Below, piece after piece: positions 44,873-63,065 of a DNA stretch of 64,000 nt. The notes under the pieces were generated by a model. That model was not told where the DNA came from. It saw only the letters and a list, made by a program, of their open reading frames with translations, and ran no database searches. A program made the translations under genes and the position numbers. The stretch is from Pegea sp. RAD2-039 (Eukaryota > Chordata > Thaliacea > Salpida > Salpidae). The stretch spans positions 35,439 to 99,438 of the forward strand of contig JAQGEQ010000143.1 in NCBI GenBank assembly GCA_034620365.1. The letters are read 5' to 3'. Position 1 is the first letter of the stretch. Each line of letters starts with the position of its first letter.

Positions 44873-46215
44873 GAGAATCCATATAACCATAAAAGGCATT
44901 TAAAGATGAATTCTTTTAAATATTATAGAAGTAAGACAATGGGGGGAAGATTAACTACAGCGAAACAAATTGTTAGACTATTGTGTTTTGTTGATTAGCA
45001 ACAGATCTGACGTATAAATAATAAAACCAAATAGTTCGTAAAGATCTTATTTAATAAAAAAGTTTAAAATAAACTAACTGCTAAACAACCAGCAAAATAT
45101 GGTTCATCTAATTTTTTTCCAAATTTATAAAAAATTAAAAAGTCACTTAATTTTTTATCAACCTATAATTGTAAGTTTGATGTAAACATTTGGGTAATAA
45201 ATGACTCAGTACTGTAGCAGATGAGAGTAGTTATGATGATTGAATTGTTGATAAAATGTATTATTAAGATGCATTTATTTTTAATATGAAATGATATAAA
45301 GAAACCATTAAATTGAAAAATATATAGTTTAAGATCGAATCTTTAGTTTCTTGCAACTACACTCACAAGTAGTTACTAATCTCTATATTAATCTGCTAAT
45401 GAAATCCTACTGAGAGATTCTTATAGGCACCAAAATCTTAGATATCATAATAAAAATACTAGTTATATAATTAATAATTATAAATTAATAATATAATTAG
45501 TAATACTATAATTACTAATCTTTAAATTGTGATCCATTAGTAAGAAACATCTATTTATACATTAGTTTCTTTTAAATTATAAGCCTCGTTATAAATTACT
45601 AATATAGTTAATTAGGTTATGAATACCTAAGACATTCTCTTTTAAAATAGTTTGTATTTAAACATATAAAAGAAATGTAAACAAATCATAAATAAATATT
45701 AGAAAGTTAATCTTTTATCACAAAGTTAAATGGTTTTAAAAAACCTTATTAAGAGCTTTCTAGTAAAAATTATAGACCTCATTCAAAAATTGAACTGTAA
45801 TAATATCGTTTTTTTGGAAGTTTTTTCTCTTTTCAAACTAAATCGGGATTAAACTTTATAAGATAGAGTTTTCAGCTTAATATTATATGTGTTTTACATT
45901 ATTAATATTTAAATTATTAATATTTAAAAGAAACTTCTAGAAAATTAATACTTTTATATTGCTTTAAAAGAAACAAAAAAGGAATGCAAGCTGCATTAAC
46001 AAATTCTCTTAATAAGTTTAGATTTGTAGTTACTCAATATTGCTGAAAAATTTTAATGCACAACAAATATTAATAGCAAAACGGTAAAATCATCAAAATA
46101 ATAATCGACAAGTTACAAAATCCAAACTGCAGAAGCTTCTAGAACTTTGATTCTGTCATCATAATTTGCGTGCAAACATTTTTATGTTTCTAACATTGCT
46201 TTCAAAATTATGTGC
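44873..46215. repeat. Inverted copy of 9120-10460
   Basis: Begins inside the exon-like block (GAGAATCCATATAACCATAA, frame open to TAG at 44996-44998) and ends in the AAAGCAATGTTAGAAAC block. The left breakpoint cuts the possible exon of 10331-10477, removing its acceptor. Confidence 0.7.
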
Positions 46216-46984
46216 AATAAAAATGTAGATTTTATATAAAAAACCATATGAAAAGATTGGTTGATATTCTAAAATTATTATAAATAATATGCTATATGAA
46301 ATAAAATCATCTCTAAAAGTACTAGTCCATAACTTACCCGATTGGTCTTTTGAAATTAACATCCTTAGAATTAACATATTGAGTTGCTAAGACAGTTTGA
46401 ATTATTTTCCTTATTTTTTAACTTTATACGTAAAACAGGAGAACTAATAAATGCCAATTTGTTACCAGTCCATTTTAATCGAATCGATGAAATTGCTTTA
46501 AATTGCTAGAATGTTTGTGAACTGTTTTGTTTCATTACTTAAACATCAGATTTGTTTGTATTTTAGTTCCTATTTCTTCACACATATATTTCTTCACAAA
46601 TTAATACAGGATTTGTACATTTTATTGTCAGATTTTTTTTTCTGTAGATCCTTTTGAGCGCCTGTGACTTTTGATGGTTTTTCATCTTTAAATCTCGAAC
46701 AACGGAATAAGTTGCTAAATGAGATAGAATGTTTTTCCTTTTTTATATTCTTTGTTATATAGTAGTTTTCTTAATCTAATTCCAATACATCAGACGTACT
46801 GAGAAATGTTGATTTGTTACATTGATGGTTTTATGAATGATTTTAAAGTAATAATTAATAATTGATAAATCTTCAAAAAAAGAATTACAAAAATCAACGG
46901 TACAAAAAGTGCGATGTGTATCTCAAAAAACTATGAAATAATAAAACTTAAAAGAGTATTTCAAGTTTGAGGCAAATATAAATG
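46216..46984 (-). repeat. Truncated Zf downstream module (orphan)
   Basis: Matches about 17690-18440 of the Zf2 module in the same orientation and stops abruptly at GAGGCAAATA (46970-46979). The next 3.25 kb of the Zf2 version, including the gene itself, is absent here. It is the left part of a third head-to-head pair whose minus-strand gene is missing. Confidence 0.7.
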
Positions 46985-47425
46985 ACTACTTAAAAACTCA
47001 ATAAATCATTGGAAAAATCACCAGAAATTAGAAGTAGTTTAAAAGCAATTGATCTTTACAGTAGTTGTTTTTAAGCCCACCTCTCTCAATCCTATTTAAT
47101 TAGCAAAAATAATAAATTATCCAATTTAGATATCTTTTATAAAATATTGCCCTAAATATACTTGTAAATGAAACTTCTTGTAATTGTTATAATAAATATT
47201 CATATCTCAATCTATTTCATTTAATGACTTTAATTTGTAAATAAGAATAACAGAAAATTGTTTCAAATGCTTTAAAAAGAAGTTAAGTAATAAATCCACA
47301 ATTTTCGTTTGATGAGGAGGGCTCTGCTGGTATTGACTACTTCCTGCGCGATTGTTTCTTGTTGGTGCTTCTCCCATTTTTTCTCTTTTTTGCTCGCTTT
47401 TTTTCGTCTGCTGCCATCTGGTGGT

Positions 47426-47990
47426 TTATGTGTTACAATTAATGACATTATCAAATAGAGTAAGCCTGATGTTACTGACCACTGATATTTGCGTACTAGC
47501 TACAGAGGAGTTAGAAGAAAGCGCACAACTTTCGTCAGTGAGAACAGGAGCAAAAAATCTTAATTCACGCAAGAGGTCATCATTTCCTTTTAAAAGTTGG
47601 GACAGCTGTCCGCCAATTAGTGTTTAGCAAGTTATCTTACTTTTTGATTAACTGTTGCTCACCTGACTGTATACTTCAGATTCGGACAAAATCGGGGTAA
47701 AAGTATATTTCGAGATTTTGAGATCATCCTGTTCTTTCATATATTTGTTCAAAATTGCCAAAAACGAGTGAAAGATATCCGGTTGTGATTTAAAACGATT
47801 CTAAGCGACCAAAAATTGTAATACCAAGCTATAAGGTTCATCAGAATCTTACTTTGATCTTGTTAACGAACTTGATAGCATACTCATATGTTATGGGATC
47901 ATTTTGGTCATTCGATACAGAAACAGAATCTGTAAATTCACAGTTAGTCGCAAGGATCAATTTTTCATCAGGTGTGTGTCGATTGTCCAT
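47426..47990 (-). CDS. Small gene for a Sin3-type paired amphipathic helix (PAH2-like) domain, 3 exons
   Basis: Minus strand, three exons joined in phase 0: 47990-47853 (46 codons from ATG), 47800-47663 (46 codons) and 47605-47426 (59 codons and TAA). Introns are 52 bp (47852-47801, GTAAG..CTTAG) and 57 bp (47662-47606, GTGAG..GACAG). The 151-residue product contains AIKFVNKIKNRFKSQPDIF across the first junction, then FLAILNKYMKEQ, SESEVYSQ, and LSQLLKGNDDLLRELRFFAP after the second. These match, in order, the helices of the second PAH domain of Sin3, a histone-deacetylase scaffold whose PAH domains bind short helical peptides of repressors. No other Sin3 domain was found. An in-frame TGA precedes the ATG, so a solo-PAH protein is possible, though an acceptor-like CTGCTGAAG just upstream could join an earlier exon. 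A Lys-rich frame overlaps beyond the TAA (47272-47454). It is either a functional mini-gene or a fragment of a Sin3 gene. Confidence 0.75.
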
Positions 47991-48955
47991 TTTTGTTAAA
48001 CTTCAGCAGATTAAAAAATATGCAGAATTTTCTGTCTGAAAGCAGCATAAGAATAATTTACTTTTCAAAAATTAGAGTTTTCGAGCTTACAGATTAAAAA
48101 CAACTAACCTAAGTAGAAATTACAGATTCAAATGCTTAATTCTAGAATAAAATATATTGCAAAAAGATGTTGACTAAAACAGTATAAAATATTAATTAAG
48201 ACTCAATGGAAGGATTAAATTTAAAATGAAAATATTGCTATTATTCCAGCTTTTTCAGTTTTAAAATAATAATTTAGACTTTTTAAAAACACTAAATGCA
48301 TAGAAGTATTCATGATGTATATATGCTAGTAGTCTATTTGCATCATACAAAATAAGATTTATTAAGAAATACAGAAAAACATTGAAAATGATACTTCAAC
48401 AAAAATTATAGAAAAAGTTTTCGATTTTAAATCAGTTTAAATAACTAATGTATCTAAGAAAATACGAATAGAATAAAAGGATTAAACATTGCTTTTTGCA
48501 GACACAGCTAGTAAGTAAACTGTTAATTTGGATTTGAGATTTAGACTTTTACCTTTGAGAAATAAATATAGTTAACATTTTTAGTAAAAAATAAATTATT
48601 TTGAAGCTTTTGTTGATCAATCTGAAATATTTACTTATTTTCATAACATTTTCTATATTCAAAAAAATATGATTACTATCTAAAAATAGATATACTGAAG
48701 CTACAACTAACACTTAAGGAGAGAAACGATAAAAAAGTCAATAACACGAGATACAGTGAAGACTAAACAAAACATTATTTAGTGATAAAAGGAATGTACA
48801 AAATAGGATCATTAAAACATTACAGAACCGAATTATAGTATAAAAATAACAATCCTAGAAGTAGAAGATTAAAAAAGAATGAAACATCGCCCTTCTAACT
48901 ATATATGTTACAAAAATTTTTATCTAGTAAAAAAAACTCTATTCTCACATAGATG
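47991..48955. other. DNA upstream of the PAH gene, no match elsewhere in the window
   Basis: AT-rich. On the minus strand a TGCTGCTTTCAG acceptor-like site (about 48041-48052) could belong to a 5' untranslated exon of the PAH gene. Nothing coding was recognised and no copy occurs elsewhere in the window. It is part of the 1.97-kb insert that begins at about 46985. Confidence 0.5.
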
Positions 48956-51590
48956 ATAATACATATTTAAGTTTCATGGAAATGTACAAGGAATTTATAA
49001 CTTACAAACCAAGATAATCTAACAAAAATTAACTTAAAGTCTAATACTCTGACAGTGTTAAGCATTCACTTCAAATTTTCATTTGAAAAAGTTTGAAAAG
49101 TTGATGTCTAAACTCTATACCTGCAATAACTTCACAAAAATCAATACTAGCAATTGTCTAATAAAATGAAGCAAGCTACATAAGTTTACAAAACATCAAA
49201 AATCATTCATGATCATCTAACACTAATCATTTTTCTATATTGGCATTAAGTTTACAAGTAACTATAGAGGCAAAAGAGAGCAACAAAACCTTATAATAAA
49301 ATATAATCATAATAATATATTATGAATAATTTATATTTTGAATAATTATAATAAGATATATAACACAAACGACGTTACCAAACATTTAAACTGTTGGTCA
49401 AAGTCTTCTTAAGAATCTATATATATATGTTTGATTTATAAAAGTGATTTATTAATCTTCAAAAAAGTTTGGAGAAATCATAATTTTGAAAGCAATGTTA
49501 GAAACATAAAATTGTTTTTAAGTAAATTATGATGACAGAAACAAAGTTCTAGAAGCTTCTGCAGTTTGGATTTTGTAGCTTGTCGGTTATTATTTTGAGG
49601 CTTTTACTGCTTTGCTATCAATATTTTTGTGCATTAAAATTTTTCAGCAATATTGAGTAACTGCAAATCTAAACTTCTTAACAGGCTATGTTAGTGCAGC
49701 TTGCATTCTTTTTTTGTTTATAATAAAGCTTCATAAAAGTACTAATTTTCCTGAAATTTCTTTGAAACATTAGTCATTTAAAATTTTTTGTAGAAATTTA
49801 AGAAAAACATAAAATCAAGCTGAAATTTTTTATCCTAGAAAAATTTAATCCAGATTAAGTTCTAAAAGATAAAAAACTTCCGAAAAATTGATACTTTTAC
49901 AGTTCGATTTTTGTTTGAGGTCGATAATTGTTATAAGAAAGCTCTAAAAAATGTTTTAGAAAATCATTTGATATTTTAACAAAAATTATTTTATTGTTTT
50001 TACTAATAACTTACTTATATTTCTTTCATTATTCAGATTTTATTTGATTCGTTTATTAAACTTTAACTAAAAAATAACCTATAAATAAACCAAAAGATAA
50101 AATGATTTGAATTACAAAATAATTATTAATCTATAACTTTGAGATTACTCATAGTGATTTAATTTTTAAAAGAATTATCTATTAATTTTGGTATAAAGCA
50201 GAAAGTTTACGTAAATTTGTTGTCAACACACGTCTATAAATTATTTCACATAAATCAATCCTAAAAACCCTGAATTTTTAGTTTACTATCATACGTTGTC
50301 ATATGCTTAAGTGTGATTAGTATATTGTGTTTACGATTTGGTTAAGCTAGAATGCAAATAAACAGATAAAATAAGCTAACAAGAATAGATGAAATTGGAA
50401 TTATAACAATCATTTTTAAGTCTACTGATATGCCAATGTTACATCTTTTTCTTTCTTAATTTCCAACTTAATTAAGTACAAAATGTGTTGTATTTGAGAA
50501 TGTGGTTTAGCAAGAGGTGCTCTTTTCAGACACCCTCCTTTTCGTTTATTGCAATAAATATGGAAAAATTATGATTAAAGCATCTGTTATTTAGTATCGT
50601 TTAGATAATAAAAAACGTTTCATTACTTGAGTCCAAGTCAAAATTGTTATGGAGTTTTGTTCCTTTTGTTGTTACGAGATGTCGAATATTCTTGTAAACT
50701 AAAAAAGATAACCGATTACAAGCTGTTAGTTGTTAAACGATTACTTGTGAAATGATTTTATTTTTCATTTTCTTCAATTTATTAAATAATGCTGTTACTA
50801 ATTAATTGGTCGTTTTTAAATAATTACTTTGTTATTTTTTAGATTTGCTTAAAAATCAAATTAACAAAAAACTGATCAAAACGTATAGCTGTTTTAAAAT
50901 TTCAATTAAACAATTTGTTTAGAAATTAAGAACCTTAGAAAGCAAAATCTAAAAATAAATTGACCTGAAATGATGTAAAAAAACAATCAATAAAACTTGT
51001 TTTACCAAAATTAATTTATTTATTTTTATTCAACCTTTTTGTAAACCACAAACTCAAAACTTAAAATAACCCTTAAAAGCCCCCAAATAACGTGAAGATA
51101 CTTTGCAAAGCGGTTACTGCAGCCAGTGAGAAGGTCACAGTGGCTCCATTTGCAACATCAATTTAAACATTTAAAAACGATCTTTGTCTGTTAGCCTTGC
51201 TCAACGCTTAGAAAGAGTTGAATGAATTCTTTCTCTGACTGAATCAATCCACTGAAATGAATTATATCAGAAACTGTAATCTGTGTTTAGAGAATTGACT
51301 AAGGTTATTTCTTAGACATTGATAAAGCAAAATTAATTTATATATCTGTTTATTGAGATTTTGTATTCCATTTACTATGGCTGCTATATTCTCACTATTT
51401 ATTACTTATTAACGATTATGTAATTATTTATCTTGTAATTATATTTATTATAATTTTTGATCAAATTTATCAATATAAGAATAAAAACTAAATAGTTTTT
51501 AAAAAGCAAATAAATAATTCATCTAATTTTTAAAACTTTAGATCTTAACCCAGTCACTTCTTCATGTTTTTAAATACAATAGCAACATAA
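48956..51590 (-). repeat. Orphan upstream arm without its zinc-finger gene
   Basis: About 48960-49730 matches the arm upstream of Zf2 (21695-22400). About 49900-51590 matches the extra arm sequence of Zf4 (35160-36860), including an old SINE tail at 50485-50560 and repeat R2 at 50990-51430. The gene-proximal part and the gene itself are missing. Confidence 0.7.
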
Positions 51591-59789: not shown

Positions 59790-60245
59790 CTACTCTATGT
59801 CTCTTTACTGGACCGGGAGGATAGAGAAAACAATGTCATCATCTTTGGTGTCTCTGAGACTGATAAAGACGATGACATCAAGACTTTTAATCAAATGTGC
59901 ACTCAAAGCCTTGGTGCTGTGGACGCTCCAAAAGTTTCAATGACCAGACTCGGGGCAAAAAGATCAAATCATAAAAGACCGTTAAAAGTGTCCTTTCAGG
60001 AAAGATGGGACAAACGTAAGTTTCTTGCTAAGCTGTATAAGCTTAGACAGGACGAAAAATTCTAGGGCATCACAGTAGCACATGATATGTGTGAAGATGA
60101 TCGCTTAGAAAATAAGCGTCTTCTAAAAGAGGCGTACAGCCAAAATCAGAAAGAGCAACCAACTGATTTCAAATACAAAGTTCGAGGTCCACCATGGGCT
60201 TTAAAGATTGTGAAGGTCTTTTCAAAAAACGGAAGTGCAAAATAA
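59790..60245 (+). pseudogene. ORF1 remnant of the retrotransposon (RRM-like C-terminal part)
   Basis: One frame runs from 59790 to TAA 60243-60245 with a single internal TAG at 60063-60065. It reads DRENNVIIFGVSETDKDDD, then RPLKVSFQ, LAKLYKLR, ITVAHDM and, near the end, YKVRGPPWALKIVKV. This order resembles the RRM-like domain of ORF1 nucleic-acid-binding proteins, including the terminal RGPPW motif. The N-terminal part is missing and the TAG kills the frame. Confidence 0.7.
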
Positions 60246-61740
60246 CCACTGGACCCACATCATCCTTATTCAACCTCTCTTCGCACAAAATTATTAATAC
60301 TATGCTTCCAGCCCAAGATAACAGTACACAGAAGCCTATCACCAAATCTTACAAGTGTCAAAAAGACAATTTTTCCTTTATATTAGGTATGTTTTTCAAC
60401 GCACGGTCAATTGTCAACAAAATTTTCGAATTGAAAGCTCTTTTGCTTTCTCAAGATTTTACATTTGTTTTCATTACCGAAATTTGGTTGAAACCCTTTT
60501 ATCCTGACTCCTTTCTGGATGACAGTGATCTTTTTCGTGCTTTGCGCTGTGACAGACTGTTTGATAGAGGCGGCGGTGTTTGTGTAATCTATAAAACATC
60601 AGTGGCACCCATGATTTCAAGAATTAAGATAAATACCATTAATTGCCCAGGATTTGAGATTATTGATTTCAATTTTCATTACTCAAAGTCTAAGTTTTCC
60701 TGCTTTATATGTACCTACCTACCACCGTCTAAAGTTAACGATGAGGTTACTATTATGGCCTTAATGAAGGTTCTGAAAAGCCTTGTTTGTCCTGAAATTT
60801 ATATTCTCGGGGATTCTAATTTTAGTAGAATTGATTGGAATAACCCAAATTTAGCATTCAATGGAAAATTGTTTAATTTGAATGGAGACAAAACTAATTT
60901 AGCCAATCTGAGTCATGTCTTTGTAAACTTCCTTGATGCCAATAATCTATCTCAGATGGTTATTTTTCAAACCCAAGTTAGTGGTAATACTTTGGATTTT
61001 CTCATCACATCAAAACCTGAGAACGTTATCTACGTTGATCAAAATGAACCTTTTGCTCTGACATGCGATCACAACATGATTGAATTCAAGTTCCATCAAA
61101 CTTTTTCTACGAACGTTAAAACTCCAAGCATACGGAACTTTTATCGTGGAAATTATAACAGTAAAAACAATTTTTTATCAGGTGTTGACTGCATTTCTGT
61201 TTTCAACTCTACCGAAGACATCAATGATATCTACTCGAGGTTTACTAACATTGTTAATGAGTCAATTAAAAAGTTCATACCTTTATATAGAGTCAACAAA
61301 AAACAACACTTGCCAAGATATTTAAGGAATTTACAGCATTTGAAAACCTCTTATTCAAACAAACTAAAGCAGATCCTTCCATCAAACCTCTATACAAAGA
61401 TCTTTGTCTAGTCTACAGGAAATCAGTTTATAGCCTCTATTTAGGAAAAGAAAGTGCAATCTTATCTTCACTTAGCAAGAAAACGTTTTTTTGCTTCATT
61501 AATCACAAGCTTAAGGCGAGATCTCATCTACCTCCCTTGCTTGATAACGCCAATCAGCTGGTGATGGAACCAAAGAATAAAGCTGAATTGCTAAACAAAC
61601 AATTTGAAAAGGTTTTTATAACCGATGATGGCAATACTCCTACTATTTCCTACTCCAATATCCTTTCAAATATCTCTGAGATGGTAGATCTAGACATAAC
61701 AGTTGATATAGTATCTAAGGCTATTTCTTCTCTAAAATCA
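60194..61740 (+). pseudogene. ORF2 remnant: AP-type endonuclease, frameshifted and truncated
   Basis: The first frame (60194-61411, 405 codons) overlaps the end of ORF1 by about 50 bases. It has the apurinic/apyrimidinic endonuclease motifs in order: FNARS (Asn69), TEIWL (Glu96), RGGGV (125-129), TYLPPS, GDSN (206-209, usually GDFN), TLDFLIT (266-272) and CDHNM (Asp292-His293). The fold could therefore have been complete. A frameshift near 61345-61375 moves the sequence to another frame (LYKDLCLVYRKSVYSLYLGK, later NKAELLNKQFEKVF), continuing to about 61740, where the element is cut before the reverse transcriptase core. It cannot encode an active element. Confidence 0.8.
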
Positions 61741-63065
61741 TTTATTTTCAATTATTGTGAAGATGATTCTGGTATCAGTTATTTTTAAAATTTTTACAAC
61801 TACAACACCACATTATCGTACTGAGATGTCAACTTTAAACTCTTAAGGTCTGTTAAATATTTGTTTTATTGTTTATAGTTTACAATTAGTTTTAAATTCT
61901 ATTCTCTAAAACAAATGTTACTTCATAAGATTATTTCAACTCAGAAACAATCTTTTTATAGTTTTAATCAGTTACTGCATCGATGGTTTGGTTAGGTGTT
62001 TTGGTTTTTTGTGATTTGTTTGGATAATTAGAGTTCCATTTAAATTAGCAACTTAACGGTTGGTTCGATAATTAGAATTACCAAGAGCTGAAATGGATCT
62101 ACAATTATGTATCTACCGCAGAAGTAGTAAACCGAACAGTTTAAAACACTATAGCAACTTGCATACAAGAATATTAATCGAAAATTTTAAAATTGATACA
62201 GTAGTAACCGATAAGAAAATATTAGTTTTTCTGCCGTACTTCTGAAGTTGCAAAATTATAAAGTAATTTAAGCTATTTAAAAAACTCAATTTGTTAATTT
62301 TGATCTAACTATTTGGGTAAGAAATAGTCAAGTGCTATAGAAGATGATTTATTTATGATGATGTAAATTGTCGATAATATGAAATGTTAAAAAACTTCAT
62401 TTTCTAAATTTATAGTATGAAGAGGATAATAACATTTATTGTTATCATCTCCAACAAGCATTTTAAAAAAGGAAAAAGATTTTAAGATTTCAAACATTAG
62501 TTTTCTCGTAAAAATTGCAATAATTACTAAAAACTGTAGTTTTACTTTCATAATAAAAAAAAAACACAAAAATAATCAGTTATGTAAACATATAAAGATT
62601 TATCGAATCTTTTGAGGGTAACTAAAAAGTAACCGCGATTTCAAATGCTTTTGTCAACTATAAAAATTTAATTACTTTCAAAAACTTGTTGAAATATAAT
62701 AGAAGATGTTATCAAATACATAAAATACAAACTTTGAAAATTAATGAATACAAGCAAATTTTTTAATAGTTTATAAAAACGATTTACGAAAATAACAACA
62801 TAAGAATACTAACTTTAGTTTAAAGTAAAAAATTAAATGAATAACCTTTATGATTTATTGTAGACTTACACACTATTTCAATAATAGAGCAATCATTAAA
62901 ATAGTTAATTAAAGCATAAATTGCAACAACCAGCCAAACAAAAAATTATTATTTCATTTCCTTTAAACTCCAAGATCTTTATATAGTTAAGTTACTTTTT
63001 AGTTTAAAAATTTTTTTACTTATCCATACTTGAATTGTGAGTAAACGTTTACCAGCAAAATGATT
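61741..63065 (-). repeat. Right flank repeat and downstream module of Zf7
   Basis: About 61741-61990 repeats the left flank of the retrotransposon fragment. From about 61950 the sequence joins the Zf downstream module (counterpart of 18700-19805), including the 54-codon minus-strand frame at 62387-62551. Confidence 0.65.

What the first reader, a model, noticed from the sequence alone, without database searches (positions are those of the whole stretch)
47426..47990. Solo Sin3-type PAH2 domain encoded by a three-exon mini-gene
Seen: three short exons with consensus splice ends and phase-0 joints rebuild a continuous domain (VNKIKNRFKSQPDIF, EVYSQLSQLLKGNDDLL). Known: this is the pattern of the second PAH domain of Sin3 corepressors. 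Inference: with an in-frame stop before the ATG, it may be a stand-alone PAH protein that could compete with or bridge to Sin3 partners. A solo PAH2 protein inside a zinc-finger array would be unusual. The alternative is a fragment of a duplicated Sin3 gene.
Basis: partly seen in the sequence, partly recalled or inferred. Interest (0 to 1): 0.8.

Follow-up and report, generated by a model that had tools for sequence, protein, structure and literature searches.

The report
Truncated Sin3 copy in zinc-finger cluster
A small gene in this animal-like genome is a shortened copy of the gene-silencing protein Sin3 that keeps little more than one partner-binding domain; it sits where a zinc-finger gene would normally be and is present in four copies, so it may act as a natural decoy for Sin3 partners.

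Summary
Three exons on the minus strand (47990-47853, 47800-47663, 47605-47426), with GT-AG introns of 52 and 57 nt, rebuild a 151-aa protein with a Sin3 PAH2 domain (best PDB match Sin3A, E 1.8e-22). The gene is an internally deleted, truncated DNA copy of the one Sin3 gene detected in the genome (contig C15). It keeps Sin3's start (MDNR..PDEK), part of its 5' flank, and both PAH2 introns at the same positions and lengths; PAH1 is missing and the homology stops before PAH3. The last 17 residues come from a former Sin3 intron whose acceptor is lost. The copy occupies the ZNF-gene slot of a repeat unit in a cluster of about 140 ZNF genes; the genome holds four near-identical copies. An intact frame and splice sites at about 29% intron divergence, and conservative PAH2 changes, suggest selection for a protein, but this is not proven; a sister copy on C198 has decayed. 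The likeliest function, inferred, is a PAH2-only protein that binds Sin3-recruiting repressors but cannot recruit HDAC: a competitor or tuner of Sin3. Expression is untested.

The parts
47853..47990 (-). Exon 1: Sin3-type start (MDNRHTPDEK...), joined at about 47882/47881 to the start of PAH2 (EYAIKFVNKIK)
   Evidence: both parts align to the Sin3 gene on C15, about 1.46 kb apart there
47801..47852 (-). Intron 1, 52 nt, phase 0; same position and length as in Sin3
   Evidence: 36 of 52 bases identical to the Sin3 intron
47663..47800 (-). Exon 2: PAH2 core
47606..47662 (-). Intron 2, 57 nt, phase 0; same position and length as in Sin3
   Evidence: 41 of 57 bases identical
47426..47605 (-). Exon 3: end of PAH2 and linker, then a tail read from former intron 3, stop TAA
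47428..47479 (-).
   Evidence: copy L020 has a 2-bp deletion at its end
47310..47427 (-). Remnant of Sin3 exon 4 with length differences of 2, 6 and 34 nt; probably no longer coding. Local alignment with Sin3 ends near 47346; the part to 47310 is a weaker match in the global alignment
47991..48957 (-). 5' flank; parts are homologous to the Sin3 5' flank, and 47991-48162 (with the first 86 nt of exon 1) matches 15 further places in the genome
46974..48957 (-). Insert with no other copy in the window (mini-gene plus flanks); four copies in the genome, one of them (L021) partly deleted at its right end
46301..46973 (.). Left flank: repeat that elsewhere lies about 1.3 kb downstream of ZNF genes (4 other places in the window: 17765, 31665, 42640, 56072)
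   Evidence: found behind 4 of the 5 ZNF genes compared
48958..49788 (.). Right flank: repeat that elsewhere lies upstream of ZNF genes
   Evidence: 82.8-86.8% identity over 231-234 nt with four ZNF genes; 76% over 168 nt with the fifth

Best explanation
The feature is a small protein-coding gene that arose by DNA duplication of the 5' half of the organism's Sin3 gene. Shown by sequence: it keeps the Sin3 start, part of the 5' flank and the PAH2 exons with their introns; about 1.46 kb of Sin3 DNA including PAH1 is missing; it ends soon after PAH2; it sits in the same orientation and slot as a ZNF gene in a repeat unit; and it exists in four near-identical copies. Inferred: it is expressed, and the product is a PAH2 domain that binds SID-type helices of DNA-bound repressors but lacks the HID, so it cannot bring in HDAC. 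It would compete with full Sin3 for those partners and so relieve or tune repression, as a gene-encoded decoy.
For: Origin: shared start MDNR..PDEK and 5' flank; both introns at the same positions and of the same lengths as in Sin3, 36 of 52 and 41 of 57 bases identical; 73% DNA identity over 465 nt across exons and introns. One HID match in the genome, on C15. Slot: upstream and downstream ZNF-unit repeats flank the insert. Protein-level selection: no stop, ATG and four splice dinucleotides kept at about 29% intron divergence; simulated neutral probability 0.005 for substitutions alone at an assumed 0.18 per site, 4e-5 with frame kept. PAH2 changes are conservative (BLOSUM sum +7 against a neutral mean of -22 or -20, P 0.002-0.0025). 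dN/dS 0.27 in exon-1 tail plus exon 2 (57 codons) and 0.40 in 75 PAH2 codons. No net length change in exons 1-2, exon 3 or introns 1-2, but three length differences just beyond. Three copies differ at 5 of 873 sites in gene plus 310 nt upstream, against 26 of 969 in the unique ends of the same insert (P 4e-4).
Against: No expression data, so transcription and splicing are unshown. dN/dS over all 134 codons is 0.53, and 1.14 in exon 3, which also fits one free and one constrained lineage. In PAH2 the number of hydrophobic positions changed (12) equals the neutral mean (12.0), and their change to non-hydrophobic residues (2 against 4.6) is not significant (P 0.07-0.11). Low divergence among the copies includes introns and 5' flank, so gene conversion explains it as well. 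Related Sin3-like 5' fragments occur at 15 places, and the 6 examined have no ATG at the start, so multiplication alone shows no function. No SID-like motif was found in the six ZNF proteins of the window (motif recalled), so the ZNFs are not shown to be its partners. The end of PAH2 carries less conservative changes (EFGQFLP to ELRFFAP).
Confidence: 0.6

Rival explanations
1. A pseudogene fragment of Sin3 that hitchhikes in the ZNF cluster; its open frame is luck plus copying among the four units.
For: A sister copy on C198 is clearly broken; Sin3-like 5' fragments occur at 15 other places and the 6 examined lack the ATG; the acceptor of intron 3 is lost and exon 4 has decayed; overall dN/dS 0.53, exon 3 1.14.
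Against: All four copies keep the exon 1-3 frame up to the former intron and the dinucleotides of introns 1 and 2. Chance retention is improbable at this divergence under the assumed rates, and the amino-acid changes are conservative (P 0.002).
Confidence: 0.27
2. An expressed PAH2 protein that acts as an adaptor instead of a decoy: it joins a complex with the cluster's ZNF proteins, or keeps repressing without HDAC, as reported for mammalian SIN3B-SF.
For: It occupies a ZNF slot and shares distal upstream DNA with ZNF genes. SIN3B-SF, with PAH1 and PAH2 but no HID, does not bind HDAC yet still represses basal transcription (PMC5902990, passage seen).
Against: No SID-like motif in six ZNF proteins (motif recalled). 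The proximal 5' flank resembles that of Sin3, not that of ZNF genes.
Confidence: 0.1
3. A question within the reading that it is a gene: there is a fourth exon, and intron 3 is still removed with a cryptic acceptor 10-20 nt downstream, giving a basic or Sin3-like tail.
For: The donor GTCAGT is kept and AGs follow at CCACCAG, GGCAG and CAG; the 2-bp deletion of copy L020 would then be harmless.
Against: The exon-4 remnant has length differences that break the Sin3 frame (2 and 34 nt), so it shows no sign of constraint.
Confidence: 0.3

Closest known systems
Sin3 corepressor (SIN3A/SIN3B, Drosophila Sin3A, yeast Sin3)
   Same: PAH2 sequence (E 1.8e-22 to the Sin3A PAH2 of 2l9s); start and intron positions of the local Sin3
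   Different: PAH1 missing, homology ends before PAH3, no HID match on its contig; 151 aa; four copies; in a ZNF cluster
SIN3B short form, SIN3B-SF / SIN3B(293)
   Same: PAH without HID, so no HDAC docking; PAH2 present; ends in a unique stretch of 19 residues, here 17 intron-derived residues (PMC5902990, passage seen)
   Different: SIN3B-SF is an alternative form of one gene with PAH1 and PAH2; this is a separate locus with PAH2 alone
C. elegans SIN-3
   Same: A single PAH domain (PMC5902990 and PMC9217932, passages seen)
   Different: C. elegans SIN-3 also has a HID and a Sin3a_C domain (same passages)
MicroProteins / truncated dominant-negative paralogs (recalled; one search found no paper holding 5 of its 6 terms)
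   Same: A paralog reduced to one interaction domain, expected to titrate partners
   Different: Known cases, as I recall, are mostly dimerisation domains of transcription factors; a corepressor PAH example is not known to me

Membership tests
PAH domain (Pfam PF02671) | Profile match over the curated cut-off | tested here: met
   35 bits against 21.3 for the joined protein. The genome-wide six-frame PAH search did not list the mini-gene, whose exons are short
PAH domain (Pfam PF02671) | Four-helix fold with a hydrophobic groove | not testable with these tools
   The spliced protein is not a contiguous translation and so falls outside the stated rule of the structure tool; no job was run. The sequence aligns without gaps to the PAH2 structures 2l9s and 1g1e
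Sin3 family, as a full corepressor | HDAC interaction domain (PF08295) | tested here: not met
   Single match in the genome, on C15; DNA of the C15 Sin3 region (L023, 9.9 kb) matches the window only at the mini-gene and at one unrelated 90-bp piece
Sin3 family, as a full corepressor | Several PAH domains including PAH1 | tested here: not met
   The Sin3 DNA between exon 1 and PAH2, with PAH1, is absent; one PAH stretch in the protein
Sin3 family, by descent | Homologous exons, introns and start | tested here: met
Functional protein-coding gene | Transcribed and spliced mRNA | not testable with these tools
   No RNA data held
Functional protein-coding gene | Reading frame under purifying selection | tested here: inconclusive
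   Supporting: (BLOSUM). Ambiguous: dN/dS 0.53 overall, 1.14 in exon 3, 0.27 in exon-1 tail plus exon 2; hydrophobic positions changed at the neutral rate

The most novel reading that the evidence does not exclude
A very large ZNF cluster has built in its own Sin3 decoy genes: PAH2-only proteins that occupy ZNF gene slots, multiply with the cluster and set how strongly Sin3-HDAC can be recruited, so that repressors and a modulator of their corepressor evolve as one unit.
Probability: 0.15. Interest if true: 0.75.

Novelty: new variant of a known kind. Interest (0 to 1): 0.47.

Why it matters
If expressed, it is a corepressor paralog cut down by an internal deletion and the loss of one splice acceptor to little more than the domain that binds repressors, with the parental gene, a decayed sister copy and four open copies all in one genome. 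That makes it a testable natural experiment in how decoy proteins arise, and in whether ZNF clusters can carry modulators of their own corepressors.

Tried and rejected
Rejected: an exon set of a full Sin3 gene next door (HID only on C15; Sin3 homology ends soon after the gene). Rejected: retrocopy (introns kept). Not supported: cargo of a simple transposon. The insert ends at 46974 and about 48957 meet ZNF-unit repeats, and I saw no terminal repeats or target-site duplications by eye at the L021 joints; no dedicated search for them was run. Not supported: SID motifs in the ZNF proteins (0 of 6; motif recalled). Led nowhere: naming the organism. No COX1 (that search rang in 8 of 14 control genomes), no arthropod RR cuticle domain, no nematode cuticle collagen, and no match to a rotifer spliced leader recalled from memory, with 0 or up to 3 mismatches. 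The two cuticle searches rang in no control genome, so they exclude nothing firmly, and the recalled leader may be wrong. The promoter scan is for bacterial patterns and was not used. Paper searches for a truncated Sin3 paralog or a PAH/ZNF chimera: no such gene seen in the listings (0 papers; 11; 2; 0; 1); open-licence papers only. Listings were not read further. In one search the DNA alignment of exon 4 failed through a slicing slip and was redone.

Full report
What was checked. The window is contig C89:35439-99438 of an unnamed 105.7-Mb assembly; its GC content is 22-34% in 2-kb steps. The protein matches Pfam PAH at 35 bits and the Sin3A PAH2 of 2l9s over residues 26-112. An in-frame TGA begins 15 nt before the ATG.

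Where it comes from. A PAH profile search of the genome finds two stretches, both over cut-off and both on C15; it does not list the mini-gene, whose exons are short, so it is not a complete census. One HDAC-interaction domain is found, also on C15. With PAH1 and PAH2 read there, this is the one Sin3 gene detected; I did not annotate all of it. The mini-gene aligns with it at 73% over 465 nt, across exons and introns. Both PAH2 introns lie at the same codon joints with identical lengths, and 36 of 52 and 41 of 57 bases match. The Sin3 gene starts MDNRPKPDEK and the mini-gene MDNRHTPDEK, and homology runs from this start into the 5' flank. In the mini-gene the exon-1 part and the PAH2 part abut at about 47882/47881; in Sin3 they are about 1.46 kb apart with PAH1 between them. 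So it is a DNA-level, internally deleted copy of the 5' half of Sin3.

The C-terminus. In the Sin3 gene the PAH2 exon ends at ..SSVATPQLPA, followed by a 52-nt intron GTCAGT..ACAG and an exon that continues TPPQKPPHSSEPEKTVEAPTR (the intron is my reading of the frames, no RNA). Copy L020 has a 2-bp deletion at its end that removes the stop. Beyond it, the exon-4 remnant has length differences of 2, 6 and 34 nt relative to Sin3, whereas exons 1-3 and introns 1-2 show no net length change. Intron retention with the TAA stop is favoured; cryptic splicing is not excluded.

Where it sits. A search with the N-terminus of a window ZNF gene gives 142 matches (150 of 161 candidates scored), 141 of them on C60, C254, C255 and C89 and one on C93. 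The mini-gene insert, 46974-48957, is flanked on its 3' side by a repeat that elsewhere lies about 1.3 kb downstream of ZNF genes (4 of 5 ZNF genes compared), and on its 5' side by a repeat that lies upstream of ZNF genes (5 of 5), in the same orientation. It therefore occupies a ZNF gene's slot. The genome holds four copies: C89, C60 and two on C255. The fourth, L021, has another left flank and a deletion on the right.

Is it kept by selection? The four copies keep exons 1 and 2, exon 3 up to the former intron, and the splice dinucleotides of introns 1 and 2; the window and L020 are identical over residues 1-134, L019 and L021 each differ by one residue. Three copies (window, L019, L020) differ at 5 of 873 aligned sites from 47426 to 48300, against 26 of 969 in the unique ends of the same insert (P 4e-4). 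Over 47300-48300 the figure is 6 of 999, against 155 of 2674 in 44950-46973 plus 48617-49284. Introns and 5' flank share the low divergence, so gene conversion or regulatory constraint may contribute. Against Sin3, dN/dS is 0.27 in exon-1 tail plus exon 2 (57 codons), 0.40 in 75 PAH2 codons, 1.14 in exon 3 (42 codons), 0.55 in the 5' part of exon 1 (35 codons) and 0.53 over all 134 codons. Neutral simulation from the Sin3 sequence keeps ATG, frame without stops and splice dinucleotides in 0.5% of runs at 0.18 substitutions per site (4.4% at 0.10, 0.03% at 0.33), and in 0.004% at 0.18 if frame-breaking indels at a tenth of the substitution rate are added; the rates are assumptions. Thirty-five amino-acid changes in 82 PAH2 residues have a BLOSUM sum of +7 against a neutral mean of -22 or -20 for two base compositions (P 0.002, 0.0025), while hydrophobic positions are changed as often as under neutrality (12 against 12.0) and to non-hydrophobic residues not significantly less (2 against 4.6, P 0.11; 0.07 for the other composition). 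Of the 35, taking the Sin3A of 2l9s as reference, 25 are on the mini-gene side, 1 on the Sin3 side and 9 cannot be assigned. I judge selection for a protein likely, not proven.

Sister fragments. C198 holds a broken copy with the same start region and PAH2 remnants. Its PAH2-side junction lies within a few bases of that of the mini-gene in local alignments, so both may descend from one PAH1-less duplicate (inference). A shorter 5' piece, flank plus about 29 codons, matches at 15 further places on C275, C286, C261, C267, C273 and C274; in the 6 of 15 examined the ATG reads ATA or ATT. Sin3-like 5' DNA has thus been copied repeatedly, and copy number alone proves nothing.

What it probably does. 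PAH2 is the docking site of SID-bearing repressors, and the HID docks HDAC (established knowledge of the Sin3 family). A protein with PAH2 and no HID should compete with Sin3. The nearest precedent, SIN3B-SF with PAH1 and PAH2 only, does not bind HDAC but still represses basal transcription (PMC5902990, passage seen), so a decoy is not the only outcome. No SID-like motif was seen in six ZNF proteins of the window, so the partners are open.

Judgement. The finding is real and better explained than at first reading: a truncated, PAH2-only Sin3 paralog, multiplied in a ZNF cluster. It is a new variant of a known kind, with moderate interest until expression is shown.

Noticed in passing
genome-wide; Sin3 gene in L023: The palindrome TGATGACGTCATCA occurs 1972 times in the genome, control 0. 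Its core TGACGTCA occurs 11 times in 9.9 kb around Sin3 (about 0.1 expected; control ACTGCAGT 0); 8 of the 11 lie in candidate GT-AG introns of 47-52 nt, three times as pairs 19-24 nt apart. Introner-like or CRE-like; no paper in the held library contains the 14-mer.
   Followed up: partly
L022:4994-5292 (C198): The broken Sin3 copy keeps three TGACGTCA sites and a nearly unchanged intron 3 (4 mismatches in 52), although its reading frame is lost; the mini-gene has none of these sites.
   Followed up: partly
C275, C286, C261, C267, C273, C274 (e.g. L037:2947-3207): A Sin3-like 5' fragment matches at 15 places. Five of these loci, compared, share long stretches at 85-93% identity, so they are units of another multicopy region; 2 of the 5 (L040, L041) hold C2H2 motifs.
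   Followed up: partly
window 7809-54798; C60, C254, C255, C89: A ZNF cluster of about 140 genes with one conserved N-terminal region ([16 protein letters not shown]..), spread over about 1.07 Mb of four contigs, mostly without stops in the matched stretch.
   Followed up: partly
60167-61788, + strand: Overlapping open frames that look like a piece of a LINE-type retroelement (recalled likeness).
   Followed up: no
47991-48300: The 310 nt upstream of the mini-gene vary at only 3 of 310 sites among the four copies, and 48095-48287 has no substitution in any pair, only small length differences: a conserved promoter or a conversion tract.
   Followed up: partly
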